Assembly: GCF_000003815.2 (NCBI RefSeq)
Contig: NC_049996.1
Span: 15,293,637 to 15,357,636, forward strand
Source: Branchiostoma floridae
Taxonomy: Eukaryota > Chordata > Leptocardii > Amphioxiformes > Branchiostomatidae
Direction: 5' to 3'
Length of the DNA: 64,000 nucleotides
Every line of letters starts with the position of its first letter. The first letter of the stretch is position 1. The translations under genes and the position numbers were made by a program. Below, piece after piece: positions 4,591 to 56,156 of this stretch. The notes beneath the pieces are model-generated. The model saw only the letters and a list, made by a program, of their open reading frames with translations. It did not search any database and was not told where the DNA came from.

Positions 4591-4910
4591 TTTATAGCAT
4601 ACTGTACTGTGGTAGTACAGTCATTATGACATACTTTTCAGGGACATGTAACGCAATTCCTCTTGTAGATAGGGCAATGACACCGGGACATAATTATAGA
4701 ACCATGTAGGAAATTGCACATAGATTAAGAGGTCAAGCTGAGTCATAAATTGCAAGGGAATGTTTTGCATACCTTGCATGATTCAGAAATGCTTTGAAGT
4801 GGAAATCTTAGCCTGGAATCTGTCCTGTTCATTCCTCTGATCGCTTTCCCGACAAATAGTCTGTTTGTTTGTGTTCCATATCCGGTAAACCACCTCATGG
4901 TGTAGCACAC

Positions 4911-5028
4911 TAGCCTGAGTACCATCCTCCGTAGTGACTGCTGGCTCACTACTTTTGCTTGCTAACTCTGTGGTTAGCAAGCGAAAGTAGTGAGCCAGCG
5001 GACACTACGGAGGATGGTACTCAGGCTA
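4911..5028. mobile_element. Palindromic MITE, 9-bp TSD (group element 1)
   Basis: A near-perfect hairpin whose ends are TAGCCTGAGTACCATCC and GGATGGTACTCAGGCTA. A perfect 9-bp duplication GTAGCACAC flanks it (4902-4910 and 5029-5037). It is the same subfamily as 14,334-14,438. Confidence 0.85.
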
Positions 5029-5089
5029 GTAGCACACAGAATGTACTGAACAGTACAAGCTGTATATCTGGTAAACCACTACCCTAGCC

Positions 5090-5241
5090 TGGATATCAGA
5101 GTACAACTTAGCCGGCTAAGGGAATTACGCCTTCACGCAGTATCTCCCGTATCGCGTATCTCCCCGGGCCGGCTAATTTATGTTGCTAGCGGCCCGGGAA
5201 AGAACCGTAGCCGCGAGCGCTGTTCTCTGGATACCAGGGTA
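5090..5241. mobile_element. Palindromic MITE, 9-bp TSD (group element 2)
   Basis: Termini are TACCCTAGCCTGGATATC and GGATACCAGGGTA. A perfect 9-bp duplication GTAAACCAC lies at 5081-5089 and 5242-5250. It contains nested GCCGGCTAA palindromes. Confidence 0.8.
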
Positions 5242-5334
5242 GTAAACCACCACATGGATTAACCATACCATCCTTGGTGTAGCACAACATGTCCCGTGTT
5301 GTACTGAACAGTACAAGCTGCATATACAGACAGA

Positions 5335-5830
5335 TTTATGTGAACCACTCACACCGGGAAGGACCCCTACTCTTTCCGATAAGTGCAGTGGGCTCTTCAA
5401 CATGCTCGAGGTGTGGCTGTCCTCAAACACGGGACTTCCATTTAACTACCCTGGGAGCCAGACAGGACCGGGTAGCTAGCGATATAGCTAGCGAGTTTTG
5501 TTCGGGGAGCCAAGGCAGCCAGCCTGCCGACCTCACATTAGCGCTCCGGGGGAGTTTAAGCCCGAAGGAGTTATCGCTACGGGGTAAAGGGCGGATGGAC
5601 CTAATCGGGCTTAAACTCCCCAGGGCGCTAATAGGAGCTTGGTGGATATGACTGTCTTGGGCTACCGATAAACTGTCCTAGCTGCCCAACCCCGGATGGC
5701 TCCCAGGGTACCATTTAACATTCTACCAGGGGGACATCCCTAACCAAAGATAGGTACTCATTTTCACCTGAGTGAAGTGAGGAAATTTGCGTCAAGTGCC
5801 TTTCCCAAGGGTACAGTGTTGAAGCATATT
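5335..5830. repeat. Dispersed repeat, interrupted by a MITE
   Basis: The text beginning GAACCACTCACACCG, then GTGTGGCTGTCCTC.AACACGGGAC, then the CAAGTGCCTTTCCCAAGGG tail, recurs with divergence at 15,345-15,610, 19,320-19,440 and 34,150-34,300. The tail alone recurs at 6,680-6,790 and 11,825-11,935. The tail ends in a tRNA-like or SINE-like sequence (GGGGCTCAAACTCATGACC). No coding sequence is present. Confidence 0.65.
5447..5710. mobile_element. MITE, 9-bp TSD, with empty site in window (element 3)
   Basis: Ends are TACCCTGGGAGCCA and TGGCTCCCAGGGTA. A perfect 9-bp duplication CCATTTAAC lies at 5438-5446 and 5711-5719. It interrupts the dispersed repeat. The corresponding copy near 19,405 reads straight through CCATTTAAC once, which is the pre-insertion site. 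An internal inverted pair GGGGAGTTTAAGCCCG and CGGGCTTAAACTCCCC is also present. Confidence 0.9.
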
Positions 5831-5897
5831 GGGGCTCAAACTCATGACCTATGGGATTTTAGCCGAACACCCCAATGTTATGTACATACATAATGCT

Positions 5898-6110
5898 GGT
5901 TCACCTATATCCGGGGGTAACCTATATTCGTTGCCTGTAAGAAAAATCGTATTTAGGGATATGAACTCGACGGAACGTAGTTTCAAATCAGAACATTTTG
6001 AAAATATTGTAAATTTGAAACCAATGTCAGCAGACTTAATACTCCTAAGTGTGCTGTTTTTAAAGACAACGGATAAAGGACCGGAGGTCGGGACTAGGCT
6101 ATTGCATATT
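5898..6110. repeat. Degenerate copy of the 8,301-8,498 element
   Basis: It shares GGTTCACCTATATCCG, GGGTAACCTATAT and TTTTGAAAATATTG with the element at 8,301-8,498. The right end is decayed. Confidence 0.55.
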
Positions 6111-6362
6111 TCACAGTACTAGTAACATGATGACGTCTGGCACACTTTTGGCCCTTATATCAATAATCATTTCCCATTTCTCAGAAGGGGTGCAACAGGA
6201 ATCCAACTTCCGAATGCCTTCTCCAACCCAGTTACAATGCCACAACAGAGGGCTGTGCAACTCAGAGTCAGTCAGAGCTCTTGTTTATATTTTAGGCAAA
6301 CATTCATTACACAAACGCCAATTGATCCTCTATTACCAGGTGCCGGACAGAGCAGGGAAGTG

Positions 6363-6499
6363 TACTCTACAAGCAGAGGTTAGGCTCTGGCTGTTTTAGC
6401 CTGCGAGACATCAAGAAAACAGTACAAAACAGAAAGCCCGATAGAAACGCCTACAAAACGTCAAAAAACAGCCAGAGCCTAACCTCTGCTTAGAGAGTA
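6363..6499. mobile_element. MITE of the CTCCAAGCAGAGG family
   Basis: Termini are TACTCTACAAGCAGAGGTTA and its inverse TAACCTCTGCTTAGAGAGTA, continuing inward as GGCTCTGGCTGTTTT. No target-site duplication was found. Relatives lie at 26,199, 48,450 and 55,480. Confidence 0.75.
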
Positions 6500-6816: not shown

Positions 6817-7240
6817 TAGCCTGGGTACCATCCGGATAGTAGTTCGCTCCTGTGTTCGCTTCTGCTATCCATCTGGAGATGTGCGCATTCAAAACGTTTG
6901 GCGATAACGTCAGTTAATGAGCGAATCTAGGAATAGGTTCCAGAGCGCTTGTTCGATGACAACAGGCCTCCCACGAGCGGGCGGAGGGCTTGTCCGGTGT
7001 TGGAACGTCTGTTCGAACGAGCACTTGAATCCATTCCATAATTCGCTCATATGTGGGGACCAATCAGCGCGTGCATCCACTTTTTGTACGATTCCAGACG
7101 TTTAGATGGTCGGCGTTCCCAGACGGAAACACAGTGAAGCGACTGTATATAGTGTATAATGAATGTCAGAGCTAGAAGGGACTGTATATAGTATATAATG
7201 AACGCCGGAGGGAACTACTTTCCGGATGGTACCCAGGCTA
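6817..7240. mobile_element. Larger MITE, 9-bp TSD (group element 4, 424 bp)
   Basis: Termini are TAGCCTGGGTACCATCCGGA and TCCGGATGGTACCCAGGCTA. A perfect 9-bp duplication CCACAAAGA lies at 6808-6816 and 7241-7249. The inside contains a local tandem duplication of GACTGTATATAGT.TATAATGAA (about 7,140-7,205). It is non-coding. Confidence 0.85.
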
Positions 7241-8048: not shown

Positions 8049-8300
8049 TTACCCTTCTCCTGTTATAGAACATCTTGCCTTCAAAGAATTATGCTTGGCT
8101 CAGGATTTTTCTGATGTTCAATAGCAGGACAACATTTCTTGTCTATTTCGCGTAAAGACATAATGCTAGACTCTACTAGTAAAACAATGGCTTAGAATGA
8201 ACAGATGAATGAATGAATGTCAGCAATTTGGTATAAAACTATTTGACTTTTGATGCTTTCATACTCATCAATTTTGGTATTTAGCTCATTTGTGTAACGT

Positions 8301-14200: not shown

Positions 14201-16461
14201 TGCACCAGTGCAAAAAAAAAGTATTTCGATCCCTGGGACATAAAACTGGTGGCTCTGTGTATAGGACAGCTCAAGTTGTCAAGTCTCTGCCAGTTAAAAG
14301 AACCCAACACTCTTATAAAATATGGGTGACATGTAGCCTGAGTACCATCCTCCGTAGTGACCGCAGGCTCAATCCTTTTGCTTGCTAACCACGGAAGGAT
14401 TGAGCCAGTGGTCACTATGGAGGATTGTACTTAAGCTAGGTGACCTGGTGTGCTTAGCTGAAAATATGATAGCCATTTTGAAGCCTCATTGCAATACTAA
14501 ATATCAGGAAAGCAAATATAATGGCTTTGAAACTTTTTTTTCCATGTCCATTTCAGGTACGAGCCCGGGCGGAACCAGTGGCTGTCGGTCGCGTCCATGC
14601 AGGAGGCCAGGAGCGACTTTTCTCTGGTTACCGTGGGCAACCACCTGTACGCCATCTGTGGCCGGAACAAAACTGGGGAAATCTTTTCAGTAGAGAGGTG
14701 AGGAGAAGGAGAAGGAAAAACTCTTGTTCTGGACACCTGTTTTCTCTAATTAAGGCCACACCAATTTAATTTCTTGGTTCACGGATTTTTTCATGAAAAA
14801 TATGAAGCGAGAGGGCGAAATAAAAATAAAAATTGTAAAATGGTTCGGGTAAAGGTAAGGGCTAATCCAAAGCATAAAGAATAAAAAGTTTTCAGCTTGA
14901 AAAAAGTACGAAAACACTATTACTGTACAGTAACAGCACCTGTACCCACACTTTAAGGAGCTTATGATATAAAGGCCAATTTGCTACACCAGAAAGTTAT
15001 TGAATGGTTTCATTAATGGTGAAAATTTGCTGAGTGGTAATTTTTATTTTTGTTTTTTTTCTCCAAAAAAATGGAGCGAGCGAATCCGTGAACCAAGAAA
15101 TTAAATTGCCTAACATGTTGGTCGCCCACGGCTAACTTTGAGGAAACTTATTGAGTCAGAAACTGGTCTGGATGGCCTGGAACTTCTCGCAGCAATGAAT
15201 GACAGACTGTACTGGAAGTCTAACTTCACTTGCTGCTCCTCAGAGGGTGACTAATGATAATGATGATTTGTGGAAGGTCTGATATAAGAGGTGACTATCA
15301 CCTTTTTAAGATGTGAACCCAGAGAACAGACTTTAAGGTTAGATCCACTCAGGCTGGGAAGGACCCCTACTCCTTTCCATACCGTACAGCATATGTGTGG
15401 TGGGCTCTTTTACCTGCTTGAGGTCTGTCTCTCCCCAAACTTCCATTTAATGTCCTATCCGAGGGATGGTCCTAACATGAAGCTAGGTCCTCATTTACAG
15501 TGAAAGAAAGCTGTGTAAAGTAAGGCCTTTCCCCAGGGCACGAGATTTGTGGCATATCAACTGATTTCAACCCAAGACCGCTGGGTTCAGGGCCAAATAC
15601 TGTGCGGTTATGCCACATGACTCCACACTATATGGTGTATAGGGCAGTGCCCATCTCAGTTTCTGTCACCCTTGGGCAACACAGCTGTACATAACTACAG
15701 TAGGGGGCTAGTCCACTTAGTAAATGCTTATAAAAGATATAAGAAATGAAATGTTTTCTACTTTATAATCTTTCAAGGAAACTTTCAAAATGAGGAAATT
15801 TTCTAGTTTGGTGAGGTAGAGTGTTTTATTCAGATACTCATCCTTCTTGTACATGTTGTTTTACAGGTATGATCCGATGGTTGACGAGTGGAAATACGTT
15901 ACGAGAGCAACTGAGAAAGTGTTCGGCCATGCCGGGGCCGCGCTTCAGGGTAAAATCATCGTAGCTGGAGGGGGTCGGAATAAAATTTTCCACAACCGCG
16001 TACATTCCTACGATACCTCACTAGATGAATGGTCCGAGAAAGCTCCGCTACTCTCTCCGAGGGCCTTCCATCGCATGGCCACGGTCGGAGACAAGGTGTT
16101 CGCCATCGGCGGATACAAGAATCGGTCGGGACCGGGGTTCCCTGTCAACGATGTCGTGTCTGTGGAATGCTACAACATGGCAGCAAACCAATGGTCAGCG
16201 GTCGCGCCGATGTTGGAGCCGCAAACCGGCGCGGGAGTGGCCGTACTCAACGACTGCATCTACATCGTGGGAGGGCGAGCGTTCAGTTCGACTTCATCGC
16301 GGCGGTCGGTGCGCCTGAAGACTGTCACGAAGTACGACACCGCGAGGAACAGGTGGGAGAGGTGCAGTTCCCTCCGACAGCCGCTAAGGGGCGCTGCTTG
16401 CTGCACACTGAGACTGCCACAGCGACTTTTCTCCATGAGCAGACTTATAACCACAGTGTAG
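10051..16461 (+). CDS. Tandem-BTB, BACK and kelch protein (KLHL-type), BTB2 disrupted
   Basis: Six coding exons: 10051-11221, 12035-12127, 12913-13124, 13643-13769, 14557-14697 and 15867-16461. Every GT-AG junction keeps frame. The ATG at 10051 has A at -3 and follows a likely acceptor at 10042. Order: alanine/proline-rich start, BTB1 (residues about 36-166), BTB2 (from about 180), BACK, six kelch blades with a C-terminal closing strand (LRGAACCTLR). KLHL proteins normally carry one BTB and recruit substrates to cullin-3 ligases. The BACK and propeller organisation recalls KLHL9/13, but I do not assign an orthologue. BTB2 is broken: near 10,664 the frame shifts, as if 4 nt of a GGAA repeat were missing, and in-frame TAGs stand at 10,734 and 10,749 in about 30 extra bases. 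Correcting both gives roughly 770 aa. This is either a recent pseudogene or assembly error. Confidence 0.85.
11199..11466 (+). repeat. Tandem duplication copying the exon 1 splice donor
   Basis: The last 23 nt of exon 1 and its donor (GCACGTTGGGAGCATATGAA and on, from 11,199) are repeated at 11,341. Both copies are followed by the same GAGAAAAGAAAAGGGGGAGT and CCAACAGCTGT text. The step is 142 bp. The second copy carries an intact gtatgt donor, but a stop at 11,271 lies between the two, so its use would truncate the protein. Confidence 0.85.
11825..11940. repeat. Dispersed repeat tail in intron 1
   Basis: GGTACCCATTTTTACGC, then AGTGAGAAAAGTTGTG and GAAGTGCCTTCCCGAGGGCA, match the tails at 5,760, 6,680 and 15,490. 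The end GGAATCAAACTGGTGACC resembles a tRNA B-box region, suggesting SINE ancestry. Confidence 0.55.
12035..12127 (+). CDS. Kelch gene exon 2 (BACK)
   Basis: The acceptor is ttactgcag and the donor is CG then gtgcgt. It encodes ILECVRFPLLPPQQ and ends VKKDSR, the central BACK helices. It joins phase 2 from exon 1 and leaves phase 2. Confidence 0.85.
12226..12880. repeat. 17-bp GC-rich minisatellite spanning the assembly gap
   Basis: Units CCCCGCC(G/A)CCCCACTAT, 17 bp long, run from about 12,226 to 12,380 and again from 12,737 to 12,880. Between them lie a degraded stretch and the N run. The array is in intron 2 and was probably the reason assembly failed. Confidence 0.9.
12637..12736. other. 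Assembly gap, 100 N
   Basis: Exactly 100 N, the usual placeholder for a gap of unknown size, inside the intron 2 minisatellite. No coding sequence is needed across it, because exons 2 and 3 join in phase. Confidence 0.98.
12913..13124 (+). CDS. Kelch gene exon 3 (end of BACK, first kelch blade)
   Basis: The acceptor is tcttttctag and the donor is G then gtaggt. It encodes CVALLKEATRYHNMVYRQPI, the usual BACK terminus, followed by blade 1 (ECAVTFGGIVQRG, then YSQNSAWKDLA). Confidence 0.85.
13643..13769 (+). CDS. Kelch gene exon 4 (second blade)
   Basis: The acceptor is ttgtgtttcag and the donor is CG then gtaagg. It encodes YHCAAVLNNFVYIAGGEAP, with the double-glycine kelch signature, and ends NTVWR. 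Confidence 0.85.
14334..14438. mobile_element. Palindromic MITE, 9-bp TSD (group element 5)
   Basis: It lies in intron 4. Ends are TAGCCTGAGTACCATCCTCC and a decayed GGAGGATTGTACTTAAGCTA. The 9-bp flanks GGTGACATG (14325-14333) and GGTGACCTG (14439-14447) differ at one base. It is the same subfamily as 4,911-5,028. Confidence 0.8.
14557..14697 (+). CDS. Kelch gene exon 5 (second to third blade)
   Basis: The acceptor is tccatttcag and the donor is AG then gtgagg. It encodes YEPGRNQWLSVASMQEARSD, then VTVGNHLYAICGRNKTG and FSVER. The blade's usual GG is CG here, a mild deviation. Confidence 0.85.
14763..15107. mobile_element. MITE in intron 5
   Basis: Inverted ends AATTTAATTTCTTGGTTCAC and GTGAACCAAGAAATTAAATT enclose AAAAATAAAAATTG-type arms. 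The length is about 345 bp and it is non-coding. Confidence 0.75.
15345..15620. repeat. Dispersed repeat copy in intron 5
   Basis: Same family as 5,335-5,830: GGAAGGACCCCTACTC, then CTTCCATTTAATGTCCTATC, then a decayed AAGTAAGGCCTTTCCCCAGG tail. Confidence 0.6.
15867..16461 (+). CDS. Kelch gene exon 6 (blades 3-6 and stop)
   Basis: The acceptor is ttgttttacag. It encodes YDPMVDEWKYV, GAALQGKIIVAGGG, VHSYDTSLDEWSEKAPL, MATVGDKVFAIGGY, YNMAANQWSAVAPM, VLNDCIYIVGG and YDTARNRWERC. The closing strand GAACCTLR follows, and the stop is TAG at 16,459. There are four kelch repeats in this exon. Confidence 0.9.
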
Positions 16462-16514: not shown

Positions 16515-17140
16515 TATACCACGTGACAGTTACTCAAGCGACTGGATAAGATTTGGAAACAAACATTTCAGACGTTGTCCTCTGTCTTTTGTCAGTGATT
16601 GGATGAACATCTGGATTTACTTCATGTAGCTTTTAAATCAAAACTCCCAGGGAACTGATATATTGATGAGGGTAAGATGTTGGTTTAAAAGATGGTAAAT
16701 CCAGATGTTCATCCAGTCACTGATGGATGCTGTCTGAAATGCAGGGCTCTAGCCAGCTCGATTTTTTTTCCGTCATCCAATTCCCATTGTCGCGAAAACA
16801 CTATTCCATGAGTTAGAGAGACTGAACTGAGACCTTGAAAAACGGGTTTTTAATGAGATTAACGTATGCAAAAGGGCACCGACACACATTGTCGGCAATC
16901 ATAACAATAGCAAAACAAACAGTGTGTGGCTTTTATGGCCTTGGACGGCGTCCCCAAGCCGCCTGTAGCTTTTACCAAGGATGTTTGTCCATCAAGGTTG
17001 ACGGATTGGTTCAAAGAATTTTCCGTCACACGCAGCAAATTTCCGTCAATTGACGGAAAAACGGATGCTAGCTAGAGCCCTGCTGAAATGTCTGTTTCCA
17101 AATTTTACCCTTGCTGAGTTGCTTGAGTAATTACAAGTAT
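16515..17140. mobile_element. Older palindromic element split by a hAT MITE
   Basis: Left arm GTTACTCAAGCGACTGGATA, then AGATTTGGAAACAAACATTT and CAGAC, pairs with the right arm GTCTG, then TTTCCAAATTTTACCC and GAGTTGCTTGAGTAA. Inner arms around GGATGAACATCTGGATTTAC also pair. The hAT MITE at 16,742-17,082 sits inside one arm, so this element is older. Confidence 0.75.
16742..17082. mobile_element. hAT-like MITE, copy B (341 bp, inverted)
   Basis: CAGGGCTCTAGCCAGC ends and a perfect 8-bp duplication CTGAAATG (16734-16741 and 17083-17090). It is homologous along its whole length, in reverse orientation, to 2,363-2,705. It contains a shared CCGTCAATTGACGG palindrome. Confidence 0.85.
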
Positions 17141-17144: not shown

Positions 17145-18940
17145 TTACATACACTCCACATCTACTGAATTTTTCACACAACACAAACTGCTGTACAGAC
17201 AAATAGCTTCTACCAGGCATTCTAAGGCCAATTAAGGGTTTACGGATGCAAGAACTGGCAAAAATGCTGCTAGTAATTGGCCAGGCCCACTGTAAAGATG
17301 ATATTCATCTGTGTGGGGTTATATAAAACCCCATTGCAGCCCAAATCCCAAGCAAATTGTTGTCCTTTTACTAAAGTTTTAGCCAGCTGAGCTAGTCAGG
17401 TAGAGATATATAGACAGATCATATCATATCTGTACAATTACTACCAAAAGCTGTATCATAATGCCAGCTTAGGATTGGGTTTGACATTTTCATACTGTTT
17501 CATATCTGATCATTGTTTGAATCTTGTGTACATACATGTACATACACATTACTGGCCTACTATCATGTGTATATTATACAACAATCAAGATTAGAATGTA
17601 GATACATTTTGTACAATCATGGATCGCTGTCAGGCTACTGTAGCATTGTGAAAAAAAATTGACAAGCAATAAGAAAAACAAATCATAGACATCCTTATCT
17701 ATTGTGCTTGGCACCAATCTTAGTACCTAATGCATATAACTCAGAGTAGTGAATAAAAAAAAGTGGTATTCCACATAAAGAAAACTGAAAACATTACCAT
17801 AGTTTTAACAATCAGAAATCCTTATATTTTTGCTATGGGAGGTTTCACTTGGTTGTGATGTGTTGAAGTGCTTTAAGGCAGATCTGAAGGAGGTATGAAG
17901 ACAGTTACTGAGAATTAGCAGAAGGACCAGTGGGGAAGGTTGGAAACATCCCTCTTTTGAGAGTGGCTTGTCCTGAAATAGCTGTGATTGTATCACTACA
18001 ATCATTGGACAAGTCCATTTTAAAGTGACAGGAGTCAATTGTATCGTGTGGGAGAGTTACAGGAGGTCAAGGAGTATATGGAGAGAGCTATTGGTGGAGG
18101 AAGGAAGGAAGTTGTTAAGAACGCTGGCGTTTTTCATGTTGGCATCCAAGAATTATGAGCTTTATATTATATCCTATGAATGTGACCTGTATATCTATGC
18201 TCTTGTCGAAATCTACAAAAAGTCTGAAGTATTTAATATTAATATTAGAGGCAGAATCTCTGTATTTTGCATATATATTGATTGTAACCAAGTCAGTACC
18301 CAAGCTTTGCTGAGGAAGTTTGCGTGTAACCAGAAATAAAGAAGTAGAAGATCCGTGAACATTTTATTTTACTTCTTCTTACTAGTGACTGTCTTTGTGA
18401 GGGCAACTGATTTTTGGTCAGTTCAATGAATGGAAATATGGGAGCATAGTATCATGCTATATGACTCAAAGCTGTCTTGGTGTGCTATTTTTGGTGTGGA
18501 AACAGACAACTTTCTTGGAATGGCCAATGGTACATTTTTTTAATACCATGCTAAACACAGTTAAGTTAGCAATGGCCATGAAACTGATGCACATTTCGAC
18601 GGAACATTCTAAAGGTGCCTACATTGGTTTGCCGTAGCTTATGCTCGAAATCACCAGCAGGTCGCGTATTGGCTGTTATATGTTGGGGAGTATCGACAGG
18701 GGGCGTGTGTGCACGGTGTACATAGAAACCAGTCGTCAACCTACTGAAAGCAAAAACTTCACGGCGGGTATCAGTCTCACATACATGTAGTTATATTGGG
18801 TGGGAAAATAGTTTAAGTATTAAGCTTAAGTATACTGATAATTTTCTTGTCGAAGGCATGTTGGCCTCGAGTACAATTATAGTTTAATCTCGATTTTCGG
18901 TACAGCAAATTTATAGCCTCTATAAAAGAACCCACATGTC
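17145..18940. other. Non-coding, no gene recognised
   Basis: AT-rich. A 104-codon open frame (18,025-18,339) ends close to an AATAAA at about 18,332 and could be decayed gene or retrosequence, but no family is recognised. Confidence 0.4.
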
Positions 18941-19319
18941 GCTAGAAATAGTAGCAATTGGCCAAATGGAAAGATAACACACCAGCGGAGTTGGCCGGCC
19001 AAAACTTCACATTGTCACGATCAAGTTTGGGCTCACCAACTCCTCTGGTGTGTTATCTGTCTATTCGGCCAATTCCTAACTGCTCCGAGGAGCATATGGA
19101 GCCTGGTAAAGGCTAGTCTCTACCAGACTGTTATGTTATGTTATGTTATGTTATTGGGTGGGCCGACTACTCACTCTTTGCAACCAGGGGCTGAATTGCG
19201 AGGAGCTTACAATAGGCGGGGCTAAATCGCAAGGGTCTGGAGCGAGCTTCCATTCGGCGCCACTGAGGTGACCTCAATATGACAGTAATTGCCCCAGGTG
19301 CGGCCATGGTACTGTATGT

Positions 19320-19440
19320 TTTGAACCACTCACACCGCACCATCGCACATGTGGCGGGTTCTTTAACGTGCCCGGAGTGTGGCTCTCCCCAGACACGGGA
19401 CCTCCATTTAACGTCCTATCCGAGGGACGAAGGACTGACA
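19320..19440. repeat. Dispersed repeat copy carrying the empty target site
   Basis: It includes GGACCTCCATTTAACGTCCT, uninterrupted. In the copy at 5,335-5,830 the 264-bp MITE is inserted exactly at CCATTTAAC. Confidence 0.75.
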
Positions 19441-19855: not shown

Positions 19856-20123
19856 TACTGCCGGGTGGAAGCTTGTTAGAGGCAAGCATGCGCAGTTTTG
19901 GTTTAGGCTAGCAAATTATAGCCTCCTCGGCAAACTCCTTTCTTCCCAAATTCTTCGGCAAACTCACTTCCTAGGCAAACTCCCTTTCCCGGCACAACAG
20001 AAACCTAGCCAGGGTTAAAAATCGAGGAGTACAGTTTGCGACCTTTTCTGTTCTATTTGGCCAATATCTACTATTTTACTGTGGACCTGTACATGTAGAG
20101 GCTAAATTGGGCCTGCACACCCA

Positions 20124-20414
20124 TGGATGAAACCTGCATACATCATAAAGGCCGCTAGATATCTCTCCTTCGCGGACCGCAGCCTGACGGCACCACAGGT
20201 GCGAAGTAAATTAGTAGAAATAGGACAAATAAGACAGAAAACACGCCAGCGTTAGATGGCCGAGGAGTACAGTTTGCGACCCTTTGGCCAATGTCTATTT
20301 TTCCAGCGCCCTGTGGAGCCTGGTAGAGGCTATGGATGAAACCTGCATACATCATCAAGGCCGCTAGATGTCTCTCCTCCGCGGACCGCAGCCTGACGGC
20401 GCCACAGGTGCGAC
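20124..20414. repeat. Direct duplication of an 82-bp segment
   Basis: The segment GGATGAAACCTGCATACATC through GCGGACCGCAGCCTGACGGC occurs at about 20,124-20,205 and again at 20,333-20,414, with about 95% identity by eye. Confidence 0.8.
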
Positions 20415-21619: not shown

Positions 21620-23690
21620 TGTGACAGTGCAGAAGATACCTTTATATATACCTTTATACCACATCCAGGATAGAAGGCTTCATCTGATGCCGTAACTTTT
21701 TGACGTAAATTTATGAGTTCGACGCCGTATTGCAGCAGTGTCGGTTGTCTGAAAACATTTGTGTTTTGACGAATGATAAATGAGAGCGGTGGTGTTTTGG
21801 GAATTTTCGCTCACCTATATGTGTGTGACCTGGTGCATGTGAAGGTCCATGCCACCTGTTTCTCCTGAGCCGTGCGGTGGGAGGGGAGAGGAGGAACCTT
21901 AAGTGGCGTTTGTCATTAATCACTCCCATTGTGTCTGTCGGGTGACAGGTAAATACGCCATGATCACCAAACACGTCGGGTAAGTCAACATCCCTGAAAA
22001 CAGGCGGGTGTGCTTTCCCAAACTTCCATCAATGCCCAGCCCTGCTTTTTTTTTTAGTATTTATAACTCTTTTAAGTTCTAAAGATCACGCGTCCATTGT
22101 TCAAACAATCCTGCGAACTTTGCCCAGGAAAACCGTCCGAACTGCAGCTGGAAACCTTTTCTCCCAGCTGTATCAAACAGAGACATACGGCTTGTTCGTT
22201 CTTGACACAGGTGTGACATCTCTAGTGGAAGAAATTTAGGACAGTCTAGAAAATTATCAGACTGTATGACTAAAAAATGTCTGGAAACGTAGGCAAGCCG
22301 GCAGATATAACACTAGTAGTAGAAACAATGAGATATGGGGATTTGAGTCGCTATGGAGACGGTTATGGTAACGGGTTCGGTTGTTTCTCCATGTTGACAT
22401 GTTTAGTCACTTGTCCTTACTCTAAACTGCCTGCCATGTTTGTACGCTGTCATTCCACGGGGGACATACCGTTGCCAGCGAGGTCGAGCCCCTTTCAGTC
22501 CTGTCATGGCGCCGAGACTCTATTCTCAACGCTCTATTTAGATGGGTACACAAGACCTTTCTGTCAGGACGGCAGAGAAACACATCAAGTCGTCATCGGT
22601 TTGTGATGGCCACCATTGTTCCCAGGGGATTCTGGGAAAACCACACGACAGTGATGGTTTACGGCACATTACACCGAACTGTCGTAAATAACGACGTCGA
22701 CGACATGTCCACTTTGCTCAACGTGTACAACCTGTTCGCGCGGTTTGCACTTGATTTAGTGCATTATCTCACAAGTTGTCACAAGTAAACACGACCAAGA
22801 ACCATAAAACCTTCCTTCAATTCTCCTGCATCAATTTAGCTGTCGTAAGGAACACTTCCAACGCGATTCGGTATGCCAGTGAATGGCCAACTACGCTGTT
22901 TGTGTTCTTCCAAGTACTTTGACTTCAAATGCCAAACATCACTCGCACATTCATAAGGACACCTTTTGACATGCCTTTATATGTCGTGTTGAGAGAACAA
23001 TCTACACGAAAGGTCAAATAGGGAAGGTCGAGTTTTGTTCTTAACTCTGTTGTAGAATTATATTGTGTGGCTAGAATAGCTGAGGAATGTTTCTTGATAA
23101 GGAAAAGATCGGAAATAAAAGAGAAACGAAAGATGTGACGTTTTTTGTTGTTCTCATTTTCAACCCATCTGATGCGTTATTCAAAATGGACAATTTGTCT
23201 TTGACTGTCAAATTTCATACATAGTTTTTTATGATATGGATAACGTTATAGCCGCTGGAAAAACAGAAATTAGAGATTGAAACATAAACGCATAATCAAC
23301 ATGCCAAAGGAGTTTGCTGGTCCAGGAGCTAACTCGTCTGGTATATTATCTGTCTATATTTGTCCGATTTCTATTATATTCGTACATGTAGATGTACCTG
23401 TGGAGCCTGGTAGAGGCTAATACTACCATACGGAACCCATACGGACTTGAATATATACGTACACGTGTGAGCCCCCTCAGTAGTGGATTGCCCAACTTTT
23501 TGGATGTAGATGGGGGTGGGTGGAGGGGTTGGTGACATTATCCGGTACAGATCTTAAGAAGCTGACATGTTTCCTCCAGGTGTGACGCCGTGGCTCCACC
23601 TGCTTGTTTACCCTACTCCCCGCCGTGAGCACTTACCTGGGAACAAACAAACAGGTGTGCAACAACACAGGTGAACATTCTGTTTACTCT
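21620..23690. other. Non-coding, no gene recognised
   Basis: Moderate GC content with no frame of recognised type. A GGTTATGGTAAC half X-box sits near 22,363. A truncated MITE ending GGAGCCTGGTAGAGGCTA lies at 23,310-23,430. Confidence 0.4.
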
Positions 23691-23929: not shown

Positions 23930-24130
23930 GCTTTTTGGCCCATCATATATGTGAATTGAGAATAGAGAATGGAGGAGACGCAGAGGGAGACCATGTACCA
24001 GGTGGAGAGATAGTAACCTGCAGAAACACCTAGGCCCCTCCTGGCCACTGACTGCAAGATGCAGAAGAGTCTGGAGTAGTTCAAGGGAGGGGTTCCTCAA
24101 AGAGAGCGACAATACCCTGCCATGAGAGAG
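23930..24130 (+). repeat. Retroelement 3' end fragment
   Basis: The stretch ending CTGCAAGATGCAGAAGAGTC through GAGCGACAATACCCTGCCAT is repeated in reverse at 56,157-56,230. Broken frames in it resemble the tail of a degenerate retrotransposon ORF, but the class cannot be set. Confidence 0.45.
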
Positions 24131-25360: not shown

Positions 25361-25367
25361 TCGTGCG

Positions 25368-25612
25368 TAGATATTCCGTATGAGGTCCGTATGGAAGTCC
25401 TAGCCTCTAATCGGCTCCACGGGTCAGTTGAAAAATATTAGAAATTAGACAAATATAACCAGATAACACGCCAGAGGAGTTAGCTGGGTCGCAAACCATA
25501 CTCCTCAGTCATCTAACTCCTCTGGCATGTTATGTGTCTAAATTTGTCCAATTTCTGCTATTTTCCCAGCGACCTATGGAGGCTAAGAATTCCATACGGA
25601 CCTCATACGGAC
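25368..25612. mobile_element. Nested palindromic MITEs
   Basis: Outer arms CCGTATGAGGTCCGTATGGA and TCCATACGGACCTCATACGG surround an inner element with TAGCCTCTAATCGGCTCC and ATGGAGGCTA ends. A further AACTCCTCTGG palindrome lies inside. Confidence 0.7.
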
Positions 25613-25817
25613 TTAAATATATACGCACGTGTGAATCCGGCTTAGGGACCACCATTGGCCAGGTCAGGTGGTCCTTATGCCTACTTAGACAGACATAGAC
25701 TTGGAGGCTCCCACGTTATGTGACTTATGAGGCAGCTAGAGAAGTCCAACACGTTAACGATCTGTGATCGTAAAATAATAGCTTCATTGCTCAATAATTG
25801 TATACAACATAATAATG

Positions 25818-31879: not shown

Positions 31880-32093
31880 TAGTCTCTACCAGATCCGGCC
31901 TAACCGAATTGTAATAGGAGACTATGGCCATGTTAGGAATAAAAGCCTAGTAGGAGTTAATTACCCTAGGTGTGAACTGACCGGTCGGCGGATAGCTGGA
32001 TAGACTGCAGAAGACTGAAATCCAATGGCAACTTCTTTGTCCTTTCTTTCGCTAAATTCATCTTTCATCCAGCTGACACGTCCGCTTGGAGAC
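31880..32093. repeat. Dispersed repeat, copy 1 of 2
   Basis: AGTCTCTACCAGA, then TAGGAATAAAAGCCTAGTAG, GAGTTAATT, GTGAACTGAC and CATCCAGCTGACACGT match 34,679-34,903 over the whole length. Confidence 0.75.
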
Positions 32094-32429
32094 TACAATC
32101 ACACCATCACGGCAGAAGAAAATTCTACGGGCTTTCCACGCCATAGGGAAGTACACAAGTCCCTTGTAGCTGATTGGCCCATAATCTATCATTTGTAGAT
32201 TTGAATGATAACAACAACCATATGATGTGCAGGGTTGAAAATAGAAAAAGGGTGTGGACATTTCTAGAAATAACTAAAGAAAATAAAGGCAAAAGAGTAA
32301 CCCCCAAACTTCAACTAGCTTACTTTTCGTTTTCGTTCTTAATTGCACAACTTATTCTTTGAGTTCGGAATTTATTTTGGCATTCTGTGACATTAGTAAC
32401 CGTTTTCCGATATACTTCTCAAGTTATGG

Positions 32430-34678: not shown

Positions 34679-34903
34679 ACTAGTCTCTACCAGACTCCCG
34701 CCTGGCCGAATAGTAATATGGGGACTTTGGCCAAGTTAGGAATAAAAGTCTAGAAGGAGTTAATTGGCATAGGAGTGAACTGACTGGTCGGTGGGTAGCT
34801 GCATAGACTGCAAAGGACTGACTGAGATCCCATGGCAACTTATTTGTCCCTACTTGGCCAAATTCTTCTCTTTTTTCACCCAGCTGACATGTATGCTTGG
34901 AGC
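34679..34903. repeat. Dispersed repeat, copy 2 of 2
   Basis: Homologous to 31,880-32,093, with more intact GTCTCTACCAGACTCC and TTGGCCAAATTC segments. Confidence 0.75.
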
Positions 34904-35165
34904 CTAAGGAACAACCAGAAAGGCGTAAAAGAATCTCAAAGCTAACCTTCCTACATCTGCTTGGAGATTGTGTACTCTACCAGAAAGACGTAACAAAACT
35001 CAAATCTAACCTTTCTATAACTGCTTGGAGATTGTGTCCTTCTACCAGAATGGCGTGAAGAAAATCTCAAATCTAACCTTTCTTCATTTGCTTGGAGATT
35101 GTGTCCTCTACCAGAGAGGCGGACAAAAAAACTCAAATCTCACCTCCTTACATCTGCTTGGAAAT
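34893..35165. repeat. About 65-bp tandem repeat, four copies
   Basis: Units TGCTTGGAGATTGTGT, then CTACCAGAAAGGCG and CTCAAATCTAACCTTTC, start at about 34,893, 34,958, 35,022, 35,089 and 35,155. Confidence 0.85.
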
Positions 35166-36752: not shown

Positions 36753-36904
36753 TAGCCTCGACCAGGGTCCCCAGGTTGCTGGAAAAATAGGAGAAATTGT
36801 CGCAAACTGTTCTCCTCGGCCAACCAACTCTTCTGTTGTGTTTTCTGTCTATTTGTCCAATTTCTACTATTTTTCCAACGACGTAGGGAGCCTAGTAGAG
36901 GCTA
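36753..36904. mobile_element. MITE, 9-bp TSD (group element 6)
   Basis: Ends are TAGCCTCGACCAGG and CCTAGTAGAGGCTA. A perfect 9-bp duplication CACCGTCTC lies at 36744-36752 and 36905-36913. Internal AACTCTTCTG and TTGTCCAATTTCTACTAT text links it to the fragments at 18,950-20,900 and 25,400. Confidence 0.85.
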
Positions 36905-38689: not shown

Positions 38690-39530
38690 GCCTGAATCTG
38701 TTTGTATCTTAACGTGTGATGTTTTGAAAAATGTTTCACAGTTTAGGTGAAACCTATCTCTAAAATGAAAATATTTCACAGTTTAGGTCAAACCTATCTC
38801 TAAAATGAAGACCTGAATTTCTTATATTTTAACGTATGACGTTTAGGAAAAAGGTTCCACAGTTTTGGTGAAAACCTTTCTCTAAAATGAAGGCCTGAAT
38901 TTGCTTTATCTTAACGTGCGATGTTTAGGAAAACGTTCCACAGTTTCGGTGAAAACATATTTCTAAAATGAAGACCTGAATTTGCTTGTACATTAACGGG
39001 TGATGTTTAGGACAATGTTCTACAGTTTAGGTAAAAACCTATCTCTAAAATGAAGACCTGAATTTGCTTGTATCTTAACGTGTGATGTCTAGGAAAACGG
39101 TTCGCAGTTTAGGTGAAAACCTATCTCTAAAATGAAGACCTGAATTTGCTTGTATCTTAACGTGTGATGTCTAGGAAAACGGTTCGCAGTTTAGGTGAAA
39201 ACCTATCTCTAAAATGAAGACCTGAATTTGCTTGTATCTTAACGTGTGATGTCTAGGAAAACGGTTCGCAGTTTAGGTGAAAACCTATCTCTAAAATGAA
39301 GACCTGAATTTGCTTGTATCTTAACGTGTGATGTTTAGGAAAACATTTCACAGTTTATGTGAAAGCCTATCTCTAAAATGAAGTCCTGATGGCTTGTATT
39401 TTAATTGGTGATGTTTAGAAAAACGTTTCACAGTTTAGGTGAAAACCTTAAATGAAGACCTGAATTTCCTTAACTGGTGATGTTTGGGAAAACGGTTCAC
39501 AGTTTTGGTGAAAACCTATCTCTAAAACGA
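38690..39530. repeat. 82-bp tandem array, about ten copies
   Basis: The unit GTTTAGGTGAAAACCTATCT, then CTAAAATGAAGACCTGAATT and TGCTTGTATCTTAACG, recurs with an 82-bp step (39,061, 39,143, 39,225, 39,307). Central copies are nearly identical and outer copies are diverged, the usual pattern for arrays that homogenise internally. Confidence 0.9.
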
Positions 39531-39925
39531 ATCGGTGGTTTGGCGACAGCAAACAATACAAAACGCTGCACACATTCTCTAGATAAAATCTCCACAGGTG
39601 TGCAGGAGACTCTGTGCGCATGGAACAATGAGCCACGACAAACGCAGGTGCTTCCAATGTTTCACGGACTTTATTTTTACCATCCCCTCTCTCCAGACAC
39701 TCTCCCTGCAAGTTCTGTGTATTTTCTCTAGCGTAGAGAGTGGAAAACCGTTGGGCATATTTGCATTTGGACTTTTCTGAGTGGACACAAGCCTAGAGGG
39801 TCAGTCCCAAAACTTTCTAATTGGAAATAAACGAAGAAGCCTGTGCTAACTTGCAATGGACAAACATTTGGGATTTGGGTTTGAAATTACAGGCTTAGTG
39901 GCCCATGGGGCTATCGTGGGCTTTT

Positions 39926-40072
39926 TATAGTCTCTATCAGACTTCGTAGGCTTTTGGAAATATTGTCAAGTTTTGACAAACATGGTGGTAACTCGTCTAG
40001 TAAATTATTCACTTTTCGGGCCAATTTGACTACTTTTTTTTCAGGAACCCACAAAGCCTGGTAGAGACTATA
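39926..40072. mobile_element. MITE with TATAGTCTCTA ends
   Basis: Ends are TATAGTCTCTATCAGACTTC and CTGGTAGAGACTATA. Internal TTTTGGAAATATTG and GACTACTTTTTTT text recalls the TAGCCT group. No target-site duplication was found. Confidence 0.65.
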
Positions 40073-42451: not shown

Positions 42452-42824
42452 GGTGGTGTTTGGCACGTACCCGGTGTATCGGTGTAAGATACCAAGGTTG
42501 TCGGGCGCCTCCCAGGCCCGCGTAGTTACGGTAAATTCGCTCAAACAGTTCTAGATATACAGTATTTTTTCCCGACGAAAAGAAGACAACAAGAGTAGCT
42601 GTCGTCACGAACTGGAACCGCCGGGTTGAGTCGTTTTGTCCTGGTCGGAGTCACTAAGCCTCTTACAGGGCTGGCAATCCGCGAGGATTAGTCCGTGGAA
42701 TCTCTCCCGGCGGGGCCCACGGCGCGTTCGGGCATCAAATTCGGGGATTTGCGGCTCGAACACCCGTCGATTCGCGGACACCTCACCGGTCCTCTTGCAC
42801 TCCGTCCGCAGCCTGGTCCGAGCC
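42452..42824 (-). other. Frizzled 5' UTR exon with upstream acceptor
   Basis: GC-rich leader directly upstream of the start codon. A strong acceptor (ctgtttttcttcatttgtgcag on the - strand, AG at 42,826-42,825) would begin this exon at 42,824, implying one or more 5' UTR introns. Candidate upstream donors of CAG|GTAGG type lie at about 43,285-43,355. Which one is used cannot be decided here. Confidence 0.5.
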
Positions 42825-49725: not shown

Positions 49726-49731
49726 TTTTGT

Positions 49732-49805
49732 AGTGTGTGCGTATGTGTGTATGCGTGCGTACATTTGTGTGTGTGTGTATGTGCATACGTGTGTGTGTTT
49801 GTGAT
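49732..49805. repeat. GT-rich microsatellite
   Basis: Imperfect GTGTGTGTATGTG runs. The His/Thr-rich frame on the - strand is an artefact. Confidence 0.85.
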
Positions 49806-49899
49806 AACTGTTATACTCTCAACAGTGATATCCCATCTCTTCTGTTTCATTTTATGATTAAGAAACAATCTTTTGAAAGCTTGCCTTATACTCTCGTAA

Positions 49900-50265
49900 C
49901 AAACACATAAGACGATGTTTTCGCTTTTATATTGTAGACAGAATTAACACCCGAAATCCCCAAATATAAGGCTTTTCCGTGACAAGATCAGAAAATAAGT
50001 AACAAGTATCCAATTTCACTTTACCCCACCGCTGACAGCCCTCTATCTATCGGCGTTATTGTGAGAGGTTTCCAATCACTTGTATCCCGTCTTCGCCTCT
50101 CTCGTACCCTCTTTGTGCGCACGGAAATTGGCAAAGGCTAATTAGAATCCCATCTTTGGACAGAAGCGGACCATAACAAGTCCAGGTCTTCTATATGTCA
50201 GGCGGAGACAAAGGTGTTTATTAGCGCATGGATTAAGGGCCACTCGTGTGTATTTCGTTAATATA
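49900..50265. promoter_or_regulatory. Repeat-free, enhancer-like block
   Basis: Balanced composition with GGCTAATTAGAATCCC and CCAATCACTTG motifs and no repeats. Possible conserved non-coding DNA. Weak evidence. Confidence 0.2.
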
Positions 50266-50859
50266 AGGAATCATAATGAAGAGGTACCGCTGACGTAACC
50301 GGACAACAAATAACGAATGCTCCTTTCGTTAAAAAAAGAGAATTCGAAGAAGATTACAAAGAAGTGTTTGTTAGTGTGGGTACGGCGGACAGTGGAAAAG
50401 ATAATCATGCTCGTTAGCATCGGAGAGAACACCAGGTATGTTTTTGAAGAGGTACCCAATTTTCCTCCGTTCAACCTGCCTCAATAGCATCAGAACAGAA
50501 AGGCCTGGAGGGTTTGTACTAATATCTGAAATACGTGTAGAATTCCCTTTTTTTTTATTCAGTTCATGCATTTCCTTTATTCTGTCGTTTGGAATTTTTT
50601 ATCAAAATTACTAGTGCAATTTTCTCACTCAATTTCGTGTATTTTTTGTAACTGAGAGGTAGACTTTGACAAATCTTAGCCGAGAAAGACATCACAATTG
50701 GCTCTACACATTTTACACACTTACAAATGTTCACCGTGATTTACTAAAGGTAAACTCGCGCAGTGACATAATGGAGTAGCACCTCCTAGTGGTCATCCGG
50801 AGTACTGCAGGCTTGTGAGGCACCGTTTCATTAACGCAACTGAAATCGAGAATCAGATA

Positions 50860-51150
50860 TAGTATTACCTACGAGGCATAAATTTCTCTCTATCAAACTG
50901 CTTCAGCGAGAATTCGCAAAGAAGCCATTACTTAGTAAATCATTAAAAACCCTAATGATAATTGCTCGCAGCCGCAAATCGGTCCCATAGGTGTCGCAAA
51001 AATTACTTTCTGACGCATTGCCTCCACTGTCGTAAATCAGAACTCTCTCTCTGTGGAATTGAGCCCCCTGAATTAATGATGACTACAGTCTGACTGAAAG
51101 ATTTATTAGAATTAAGCCCGGGCGGATTGAGCCACAGTGTATCAAAGGAT
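50860..51150. promoter_or_regulatory. Enhancer-like block rich in TAAT motifs
   Basis: CCCTAATGATAATTG, CCTGAATTAATGATGA and ATTAGAATTAAG clusters in a repeat-free stretch. Candidate conserved non-coding element, inferred from motif density only. Confidence 0.3.
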
Positions 51151-51571
51151 TAGTATATCAGGCTTAGATCGATAAAGTGTGGCCTAGGGTGTACAGAGGT
51201 CACCTCGGACAGTAGAGCTGGGATTTTGGGGATTCGGAACCAACTATGGGAAAATCGCGGCGCGAGATGGACAAAAATCCAGCAGAACCTGTTCCCATGG
51301 TAACGGAGATTAGCGCCTTAGCAATGGCGAAGACTTAAGCTGTAGTACTAGTTTTAAGACTTGGAAAAAGTCCTAGAAGTTGAAAAAAATGAAAGTACCA
51401 GGAAAAAAGCAACAAAAAGTTCATTTAAACCCGATGAAGTCAATGTTTTGGTCATTTCTTTACACAAGAAGTTCAACATACCATACAGCATTGCCTAGTA
51501 CAAAAACGTTACAGTTGTACCGTACGAAGGTGTTGAAAACCTGATTTGTTCTGGTCCTGAGTACAGGACTA

Positions 51572-51628
51572 GAAACAAACAAACAAACAAACAAACAAAC
51601 AAACAAACAAACAAACAAACAAACAAAC
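51572..51628. repeat. (AAAC)n microsatellite
   Basis: About 14 uninterrupted AAAC units. Confidence 0.97.
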
Positions 51629-52309
51629 TAGTTTAATAGTAACTACGGTACTGGCCGTCTCAGTTTGGCCGTACACACTCACTCGTCTCACATCATGCCG
51701 TACAAAAACACTAAATGTTTTAGAGGGACCAAAATATGTTAAAAAGCTGTTAGTGTTACAGGAAATTACGCAAATTATTTTTCCGACAAATCTGTCCAGT
51801 TTGGGTGCCAACTTTCTACACAATAAGAATGATAGCCTTTAGCGTTAATATCTCCAGCTGTGACACCGTGGCCTTCGCACATCTGTGTCAGGTGCAGTTA
51901 TTGTTTGACTTTGATTTCATCTCGTTTTATACATTGTTGCCTTCTTCAGTTATTGTTTAAAACTACTACTGTAAGAGGACGTTTTTTGCGTTGGCCTCTT
52001 CATCGCGAACTTACCCACCACCGCGAACTTTATTCCTTTTGCGCATTTCTTCCGTCAAGTTTCGTGGTTTTTGTCTCCCAACTCCCTCAATACCCATTTA
52101 CACCCTCATGGTATTTTCTGATAAACAAATTAACGTTTGTTGTGTTTCTTGCAATCAGCAACGTACTTAGATTTACACGTATTGTTTAGATAGTGCAATA
52201 CACAATTTAGGTTGGCACGAATCAAGTTTTAAATAAACAATGTATTGAAATGGATAATCATGTAACAAAACATCAATCTAATAAAATGTGGTCGAGTTAT
52301 TTTGTTTTC

Positions 52310-52645: not shown

Positions 52646-52649
52646 GTAG

Positions 52650-54735: not shown

Positions 54736-54744
54736 AAGTCTCTA

Positions 54745-54870
54745 CCAGACTGACTACGCTGGTTTTATAGGGAGAAAAATTTGCGGCAGGGGAGTTTTTC
54801 TACCAGAGGAGTTGGTCGGCCCGTCCAGGGGAAACGTGAACCTAAGCGTGGACTGACTCCCCTGGCCAAA
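54745..54870. repeat. MITE fragment, inverse of 20,700-20,890
   Basis: CTCTACCAGACTGACTACGC, then TATAGGGAGAAAAATTTG and GTGGACTGACTCCCCTGGCC, match the reverse complement of 20,700-20,830. Confidence 0.7.
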
Positions 54871-55364
54871 ATAGAAAGCAACACAAAAGTGTCTATAAGA
54901 AAAAGTCTTCCATTTCTAACATTCACACCTACTAGTTGACATTGAAAGGTAAAAGTCTGAAAAGTTGTCAAGCCCCCTTCCCGTTTCGTTAGGCCGTTTG
55001 TTGCAAGAAGAAATGAGGCTAGAAAACATTACGATTTTGCCGTCCGACAAATATCTGCTCGTTTGGGAACTACATTTTCCAAAGTTGGATTTTCACTTTA
55101 CACTAAAAAACAAAAATGAAACGAAAGCAACAGTACAAATATCTTTCCCTACAACTTTGAAACGGTCCTAATGGAAAGCTATGACAACTCTATACGTCAG
55201 TTTTACAGGATAGAACGCATCGGGACTTTACGCAGAACCATTACCTAGTTATAGTGAGTTATGAAAGTGCTTGCATAATCATAATAACATCAAAATATTG
55301 CCTTTCTTTTTATCTATATCGTATCATTCAACATACGTGCCAAATACACTAGTACATCGAAGTG

Positions 55365-55388
55365 GTCGCCATGGTTACTGTGACGTCA
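55365..55388. promoter_or_regulatory. X-box-like site next to a perfect CRE
   Basis: GTCGCCATGGTTAC (RFX-type, one mismatch in the right half) is followed two bases later by TGACGTCA. Confidence 0.4.
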
Positions 55389-55479
55389 CCCACAATCAAC
55401 CCATTGTCTGAAGAATGGTATTTTGATGCTGCGATGTCCACCAACAGATGAGCGGTGTATAATTGGAGCAAACTACTAG

Positions 55480-55634
55480 TACTCTCCAAGTAGAGGTTCA
55501 TGGGGGAAATCGTGATCTTTTTCTTTTATGTCATTTTCTGTCTGCTAATCCAACCAACATTGACAGAAAAAAGACGGCATGTAAGAAAAAGGTGACGATT
55601 TTCCCCGGGCCCCATCAACCTCTGCTTGGAGAAT
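55480..55634. mobile_element. CTCCAAG-family MITE, diverged
   Basis: Ends are TACTCTCCAAGTAGAGGTT and AACCTCTGCTTGGAGAATA. Inner arms are GGGGGAAATCG and CGATTTTCCCC. No target-site duplication. Confidence 0.7.
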
Positions 55635-55909
55635 AGAACAAATCTCATTGATGGGTATAATAAGAAAATTTTGTACTTTTGTGTAAAGCACTTAACACGC
55701 AATAAAAATGTGCCAATTGGGTAACGATTTTACTCTCTACTTAACGAGAAATGATTTCATTTTCTGTGAACACATTGATATTCTGATTCTGCCCACCCAC
55801 CCGCCAGCCTACCTGATCACACTGATAACATGCACACGTATCCCTAACAACTTTATAGCGTCATTCTGACTTCTTTTGGTTTGCTAATCTCGCAGACAAT
55901 GTGCAAGGG

Positions 55910-56089
55910 TAGCCTCCATAGCAGGCTCTCGGCCTTTTGTCGTCTTTTTTTGGCTCATAATACACTTTTGAGTGAGTGATACTCTTTTGCTGGCCATTTC
56001 CTTTTGTACTGGGTCGCTTGTACTACCGGCAAAGTGTATAATGAGCGAAAAAAGACGAAAAGGGCCCAGAGAGCCTGCTATGGAGGCTA
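55910..56089. mobile_element. MITE, 9-bp TSD (group element 7)
   Basis: Ends are TAGCCTCCATAGCAGGCTCT and AGAGCCTGCTATGGAGGCTA. The 9-bp flanks GTGCAAGGG (55901-55909) and GTGCAAGCG (56090-56098) differ at one base. Confidence 0.85.
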
Positions 56090-56156
56090 GTGCAAGCGCT
56101 CCAGAATAACCACTGATCTAGCCTTTTCTGCATAGCTACATCATCATCATCATTAT

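What the first reader, a model, noticed from the sequence alone, without database searches (positions are those of the whole stretch)
4902..56098. Seven MITEs sharing TAGCCT/TACCCT ends and 9-bp target-site duplications
Elements at 4911-5028, 5090-5241, 5447-5710, 6817-7240, 14334-14438, 36753-36904 and 55910-56089 all end TAGCCT..AGGCTA or TACCCT..AGGGTA. Each has a 9-bp TSD: five perfect, two with one mismatch. Their interiors differ. Different interiors with common ends and a constant TSD length suggest one transposase mobilising many unrelated palindromic cargoes. A 9-bp TSD is typical of Mutator-like transposons, while the short TAGCCT core is not a standard Mutator end.
Basis: partly seen in the sequence, partly recalled or inferred. 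Interest (0 to 1): 0.7.

Follow-up and report, generated by a model that had tools for sequence, protein, structure and literature searches.

The report
Small transposons with 9-bp target duplications
This stretch of an animal genome carries a set of small, gene-less jumping DNA elements that share the same short end signature and leave a 9-base duplication where they land; they look like ordinary passengers of a transposase encoded elsewhere.

Summary
Pairing every TA[GC][CT]CT with every matching reverse complement within 3 kb gives 253 pairs. Seven carry flanking direct repeats, all exactly 9 bp. Of 400 random degenerate hexamers, 382 gave none and the maximum was 3. Element 2 starts at 5080, not 5090. 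Two members were missed: 31880-32095 (perfect duplication CAATCACAC) and 34681-34906 (8 of 9). That makes nine elements, six with perfect duplications and three with one mismatch. Element 3, and less firmly element 2, sit in repeats whose unoccupied relatives lie in the window. Against uniformity, three further elements with the same ends have no duplication.

"Unrelated palindromic cargoes" is only partly right. Elements 1 and 5 are one family, as are 8 and 9. Six of the eight ends of elements 1, 3, 4 and 5 fit one 17-bp motif, and elements 8 and 9 are not palindromic. The best reading is non-autonomous cut-and-paste DNA transposons of one lineage with a 9-bp stagger. MULE is the likeliest superfamily but untested: no transposase was found in the window and the host genome could not be searched. 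Families with shared ends and varied interiors are a known kind.

The parts
4911..5028 (.). E1, 118 bp, near-complete palindrome, ends TAGCCTGAGTACCATCC; duplication GTAGCACAC (perfect)
   Evidence: arms 47 of 50 identical; same family as E5
5080..5241 (.). E2, 162 bp (reader gave 5090), ends TACCCT; duplication GTAAACCAC (perfect); short terminal inverted repeat
   Evidence: short (23-bp) related empty site in the neighbouring repeat copy at 4878-4900
5447..5710 (.). E3, 264 bp, ends TACCCTGGGAGCCA; duplication CCATTTAAC (perfect)
   Evidence: related empty sites at 19356-19428 (79%) and 15342-15557 (68%) carry CCATTTAA(C/T) once
6817..7240 (.). E4, 424 bp, ends TAGCCTGGGTACCATCCGGA; duplication CCACAAAGA (perfect, boundary ambiguous by 1 bp)
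14334..14438 (.). E5, 105 bp, ends TAGCCT / TAGCTT; duplication GGTGACATG/GGTGACCTG (8 of 9)
   Evidence: 78% identical to E1
36753..36904 (.). E6, 152 bp, ends TAGCCTCNACYAGG; duplication CACCGTCTC (perfect)
   Evidence: relatives at five other window positions
55910..56089 (.). E7, 180 bp, ends TAGCCTCCATAGCAGGCTCTC; duplication GTGCAAGGG/GTGCAAGCG (8 of 9)
31880..32095 (.). E8, 216 bp, NEW member, ends TAGTCT..AGACTA, not palindromic; duplication CAATCACAC (perfect, boundary ambiguous by 1 bp)
34681..34906 (.). E9, 226 bp, NEW member, ends TAGTCT..AGCCTA, not palindromic; duplication AGGAACCAC/AGGAACAAC (8 of 9)
   Evidence: same family as E8 (about 81%)
18914..19115 (.). E6-family copy with both ends (TAGCCTC..AAGGCTA) but no 9-bp duplication
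   Evidence: 2 of 9 flank bases match
25401..25585 (.). E6-family copy with both ends but no 9-bp duplication; lies inside longer inverted arms
   Evidence: 3 of 9
39928..40070 (.). Element with TAGTCT..AGACTA ends but no 9-bp duplication
   Evidence: 4 of 9
20207..20332 (-). Partial E6-family copy, one intact end (TAGCCTCTACCAGGCTCC)
20023..20104 (.). Partial E6-family copy ending GAGGCTA at 20104
   Evidence: end read by eye
23249..23419 (.). Partial E6-family copy, intact right end, left end damaged
   Evidence: (left edge read by eye)

Best explanation
These are non-autonomous DNA transposons (MITE-like) of one lineage in an animal genome. A transposase encoded elsewhere recognises ends beginning TA[GC][CT]CT and joins both ends to target strands cut 9 bp apart. 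Gap repair then leaves the 9-bp duplications. Because only the ends are needed, interiors drift and differ, and full palindromy is optional. Shown: common ends, a fixed 9-bp duplication beyond chance, and insertion into a pre-existing repeat for E3 (less firmly E2). Inferred: trans-mobilisation, a single transposase, and a MULE (IS256-like) enzyme as its likeliest kind (I put MULE alone at about 0.5 and the MITE reading at about 0.95).
For: Seven of 253 exact-core pairs up to 3 kb have duplications, all 9 bp, with two more elements when one end may differ by one base. Motif-blind scans converge on the same ends. Unoccupied related sites exist for E3 (73 bp at 79% and 232 bp at 68%, both across the junction) and, over only 23 bp, E2. 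Two families have more than one copy with sharp boundaries: E1/E5 and E8/E9. The outermost bases of the duplications are G or C in 16 of 18, P 6.6e-5, post hoc, which fits a weak target preference. MULE fit: duplications of 8-11 bp, 9 bp in several animal groups (PMC6446971, passages). The mosquito MULE Muta1 has an imperfect palindromic terminal motif and over 300 derivatives, most with variable internal sequences (PMC5225508, passages).
Against: No transposase: 40 of 55 stop-to-stop frames of 110 aa or more were scanned with Pfam and none matched a transposase. Three two-ended elements lack duplications. The E1 'empty' copy is not clean: an 8-base difference lies at the junction. MULEs typically have long inverted repeats (over 100 bp; PMC5225508); E8 and E9 have only about 7-8 bp and E2's arms match poorly. 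Beyond base 6 the ends fall into two classes (TASCCTG.. and TAGYCTC..), so two related transposases are possible.
Confidence: 0.6

Rival explanations
1. Same mobile elements, but the enzyme is not a MULE: a different or undescribed DDE/D lineage with 9-bp stagger, very short inverted ends and TA..TA termini.
For: E8 and E9 carry only about 7-8 bp of inverted end. No transposase was found among the scanned frames. Dupeyron et al. report limited evidence of MULEs in chordates and could not detect MULE transposases for the Florida lancelet (PMC6446971, passage), which matters only if the host is a chordate; the host is not established here.
Against: 9-bp duplications are common in MULEs, and some MULE groups have short or no inverted repeats (PMC6446971 table, passages). 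Absence from 64 kb says little.
Confidence: 0.25
2. Two separate transposase lineages (TASCCTG class: E1-E5; TAGYCTC class: E6-E9) that both give 9-bp duplications and look alike in the first six bases by descent or convergence.
For: Ends split into two classes after base 6. The three two-ended elements without duplication all belong to the TAGYCTC class, although I looked for relatives mainly in that class.
Against: Both classes share TA[GC][CT]CT and the 9-bp length, and both emerged from motif-blind scans.
Confidence: 0.2
3. Merlin superfamily MITEs (8-9-bp duplications).
For: Duplication length allowed: 8 or 9 bp (PMC8101967, passage).
Against: Merlin ends conserve terminal 5'-GG (same passage); all 18 ends here start TA.
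Confidence: 0.03
4. Chance palindromes next to chance direct repeats, or assembly artefact.
For: The window has many other palindromes (131 inverted pairs, 25 listed) and 100 N bases.
Against: Random-hexamer, block-shuffle and swapped-flank controls and unoccupied sites for E3 and E2.
Confidence: 0.01

Closest known systems
MULE-derived non-autonomous elements (e.g. derivatives of Muta1, Aedes aegypti; PMC5225508, passages read)
   Same: 8-9-bp duplications, shared ends with heterogeneous interiors, palindromic terminal motif, foldback-like arms
   Different: Muta1 gives both 8 and 9 bp and has 145-bp inverted repeats with subterminal tandem repeats; here only 9 bp was seen and inverted ends run from about 7 bp to whole-arm palindromes; no transposase known
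Amphioxus MITEs of the LanceleTn series (recalled; one mention, spelled LanceletTn-2, seen in a passage of PMC5802833; the paper I recall as the original is not held)
   Same: Small non-autonomous DNA elements of an invertebrate chordate (recalled)
   Different: Their ends and duplication lengths could not be compared; the host of this window is not established
hAT-type MITEs (in-window pair 2363-2705 and 16742-17082; hAT label recalled from ends and duplication length)
   Same: Short inverted ends with a fixed target duplication
   Different: 8-bp duplication and CAGGGCTCTAGCC ends
Merlin superfamily (PMC8101967, passages read)
   Same: Duplication length 8-9 bp
   Different: Terminal 5'-GG conserved; here TA

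Membership tests
MITE / non-autonomous TIR DNA transposon | Short, non-coding, terminal inverted repeats, constant-length target duplication | tested here: met
   9 elements of 105-424 bp, all 9-bp duplications; no Pfam family in the frames of 110 aa or more that overlap E3, E4, E5 and E6; other elements overlap no such scanned frame
MITE / non-autonomous TIR DNA transposon | Multi-copy with sharp ends | tested here: met
   E1/E5, E8/E9 and E6 relatives; E2, E3, E4 and E7 have no second copy in the window; genome-wide copy number not testable here
MULE (Mutator-like) | Target duplication of 8-11 bp | tested here: met
   9 of 9 members with a duplication show 9 bp; range from PMC6446971
MULE (Mutator-like) | MULE transposase in an autonomous relative with the same ends | tested here: inconclusive
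   None in 40 of 55 frames of 110 aa or more in the window; host genome search unanswered seven times
MULE (Mutator-like) | Long terminal inverted repeats (typical, not universal) | tested here: inconclusive
   First 50 arm bases, ungapped: E1 47, E5 and E6 39, E4 38, E7 36, E3 31, E9 18, E2 and E8 16
Merlin | Terminal 5'-GG | tested here: not met
   18 of 18 ends start TA; rule from PMC8101967
hAT | 8-bp duplication (recalled) | tested here: not met
   No 8-bp case among the 253 exact-core pairs

The most novel reading that the evidence does not exclude
The ends belong to an undescribed transposase lineage, or to the elusive MULE of a chordate, that recognises only about seven terminal bases (TA[GC][CT]CT plus one), always cuts 9 bp apart, and so mobilises structurally unrelated passengers, palindromic and non-palindromic alike.
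Probability: 0.12. Interest if true: 0.5.

Novelty: new member of a known kind. Interest (0 to 1): 0.25.

Why it matters
If the host is a chordate, these elements give a sequence handle (TA[GC][CT]CT ends, 9-bp duplication) to look for the transposase that a published MULE survey could not find for the Florida lancelet (PMC6446971, passage). They also suggest how little end sequence a passenger element may need. Otherwise they are ordinary genome residents.

Tried and rejected
Rejected: Merlin (ends start TA, not GG); hAT (8-bp duplications, seen here with CAGGG ends); chance (controls). Also rejected: reading TA as a mariner-type TA duplication. The order is N9-TA...TA-N9, so TA lies inside the 9-bp repeats and belongs to the element.

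Led nowhere: exact E1-type palindrome pattern in viral contigs (0) and prokaryote genome contigs (0), both expected for an animal element. Full-text search for end sequences listed three papers with unrelated titles, not opened. No held paper contains 'LanceleTn'; one mentions LanceletTn-2. Searches for amphioxus/lancelet/Branchiostoma MITE, MuDR and 9-bp duplication papers (listings, with passages opened only from PMC6446971, PMC8101967, PMC5802833, PMC5225508 and PMC10045372) showed no description of these elements. The library is partial, so I do not claim they are unpublished.

Counts against and rows dropped: scanning for the two longer end motifs with loose mismatches gave 20 hits (shuffles 10-15) for the first class and 22 (shuffles 7-13) for the second, so most weak single ends are noise; first-class ends at 3570 and 17637 have no partner that I found. 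In one search's scan allowing one mismatch in the end hexamer, rows with left position 7 are artefacts (no full left flank; this could only inflate the random control). The remaining rows at 8 bp or more are the nine elements, two further 9-bp rows (39678-40032, low complexity; 49731-51713), seven 8-bp rows and two 12-bp rows among 11701 pairs. By my arithmetic, with equal base use, about 1 and 4-5 chance rows are expected at 9 and 8 bp. In one search, five of the 11 rows at 9 bp have other ends and were not counted.

Full report
Setting. The window is animal DNA: a single 589-aa frame at 40775-42544 (-) matches Frizzled, with a Frizzled-5 chain as the best match among solved structures, and BTB, BACK and Kelch domains lie in frames between 9.9 and 16.5 kb. 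The species is not established; amphioxus is my guess from recall only. The host genome could not be reached (seven unanswered requests), so the sequence evidence below rests on 64 kb.

Observation. All seven reported elements are there. Element 2 begins at 5080, not 5090. Of 30 TA[GC]CCT and 34 AGG[GC]TA sites, 31 pairs lie 60-1000 bp apart. Six have flanking direct repeats, each 9 bp, with no hit at 4-8 or 10-12 bp. E5 is the seventh; its right end is AAGCTA, one mismatch from the core. Motif-blind scans for inverted ends plus direct repeats recovered E1, E3, E4 and E6 (strict) and also E5 and E7 (looser); E2, whose arms do not match without a gap, was not recovered. Widening the core to TA[GC][CT]CT gave 253 pairs within 3 kb and 7 hits, all 9 bp; allowing one mismatch in the end hexamer added E5 and E9. 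Of 400 random degenerate hexamers (88631 pairs in all), 382 gave none and the best gave 3.

New members. Aligning two related copies beginning TAGTCTCTACCAG led to right ends at 32095 and 34906. E8 (31880-32095) is flanked by CAATCACAC on both sides. E9 (34681-34906) is flanked by AGGAACCAC and AGGAACAAC. They are about 81% identical and not palindromic (16 and 18 of 50 arm bases match). The nine-element set has six perfect duplications and three with one mismatch. Swapping flanks among elements gives 2.71 matches on average (maximum 6, n = 72) against 8-9 for own flanks.

Insertion evidence. E3 sits in a dispersed repeat. Two related copies without the element match across the junction, at 19356-19428 (79%) and 15342-15557 (68%), with CCATTTAAC or CCATTTAAT present once. 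E1 and E2 sit in two copies of a short tandem repeat. For E2 the other copy reads GGTAAACCACCTCATGG without the element, a match of only 23 bp. For E1 the other copy has GTAGCACAA (8 of 9) followed by an 8-base difference right at the junction, so I do not count it as a clean empty site. All this is paralogous, not orthologous, evidence. No match across the junction was found for E4-E7; E8 and E9 were not tested.

Ends. In all 18 ends of the nine elements, bases 1, 2 and 6 are T, A and T. Base 3 is G (14) or C (4), base 4 C (14), T (3) or G (1), and base 5 C in 17. After that there are two classes. E1, E3, E4 and E5 fit TA[GC]CCTGRG[TA][AG]CCATCC exactly in 6 of 8 ends; E3's left end has 2 mismatches and E5's right end 3. 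E2 is a looser match. E6-E9 begin TAG[CTG]CTC. In several ends of the second class a small inverted repeat sits at the tip, AGCCT-N5-AGGCT in some and AGTCT-N5-AGACT in others, so both arms differ in step (read by eye, whose search pattern allowed both). It is imperfect or absent in others, such as 20827, 25401, 31880 and 40070 and the right ends of E8 and E9. Muta1 also has an imperfect palindromic terminal motif (PMC5225508, passage).

Results against. E6-family copies at 18914-19115 and 25401-25585, and the element at 39928-40070, have both ends but no 9-bp duplication. Age, rearrangement or recombination could explain this, but it was not tested. Five motif-blind 9-bp rows have other ends, one of them a perfect CAGTTTAGG repeat around 38748-39430. 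The G/C bias at the outer duplication bases (16 of 18) was noticed after the fact.

Enzyme. No complete intronless transposase is likely in the window: apart from the 591-aa Frizzled stop-to-stop frame, no stop-to-stop frame exceeds 266 aa. Of 55 such frames of 110 aa or more I scanned 40 with Pfam. None matched a transposase; two weak matches were below the curated cut-offs. Fifteen were left out, mostly overlapping the genes or repeats, and shorter frames were not scanned. MULE duplications are 8-11 bp (PMC6446971, passages). Merlin conserves 5'-GG ends (PMC8101967, passages), which is not met. MULE is the best available guess, not a finding.

Verdict. This is a real, well-bounded set of MITE-like elements with common ends and a 9-bp stagger. 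Shared ends with heterogeneous interiors are the known habit of such families, stated for the mosquito MULE derivatives. The finding is a sound observation of an ordinary kind of thing, with modest added interest if the host is a chordate, where evidence for MULEs is reported to be limited.

Noticed in passing
2363-2705 and 16742-17082: Pair of hAT-like MITEs (label recalled) with CAGGGCTCTAGCC ends and perfect 8-bp duplications ACTGATAT and CTGAAATG.
   Followed up: partly
38748-39430: 683-bp stretch flanked by perfect 9-bp repeats CAGTTTAGG with TGAAAC..GTTTCA ends: a possible 9-bp-duplication element with different ends.
   Followed up: no
25353-25660 and 23249-23470: E6-type elements lie next to longer shared arms (CGTGCGTATATATT..AAGTCCGTATG); at 25 kb the arms are inverted on both sides with no 9-bp duplication at the inner element.
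   Followed up: partly
20124-20204 and 20333-20413: Segment of about 81 bp (TGGATGAAACCTGCATACATCAT...) duplicated on either side of a truncated E6-type copy (read by eye).
   Followed up: no
19114-40070, TAGYCTCTACCAGRCT sites: Several ends of the second class carry a tip inverted repeat AGYCT-N5-AGRCT in which both arms change together (C/G to T/A) between copies (read by eye).
   Followed up: no
20827, 20910 (-) and 54736 (+): Further family starting near (T/A)AGTCTCTACCAGACTGACTACGCTGG; other ends and duplications not resolved.
   Followed up: partly
59318-59892: Repeated units with TATCACATTATTTCAC-like ends and 11-bp (GCACCCTTGTG) or 7-bp (CACTCCT) direct repeats, probably a local repeat array.
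   Followed up: no
56155-56228 and 24050-24123: 74-bp stretch repeated in inverted orientation at 97% identity, downstream of E7.
   Followed up: no
40775-42544 (-): Frizzled gene with extracellular and membrane domains in one uninterrupted frame; best match among solved structures is a Frizzled-5 chain.
   Followed up: partly
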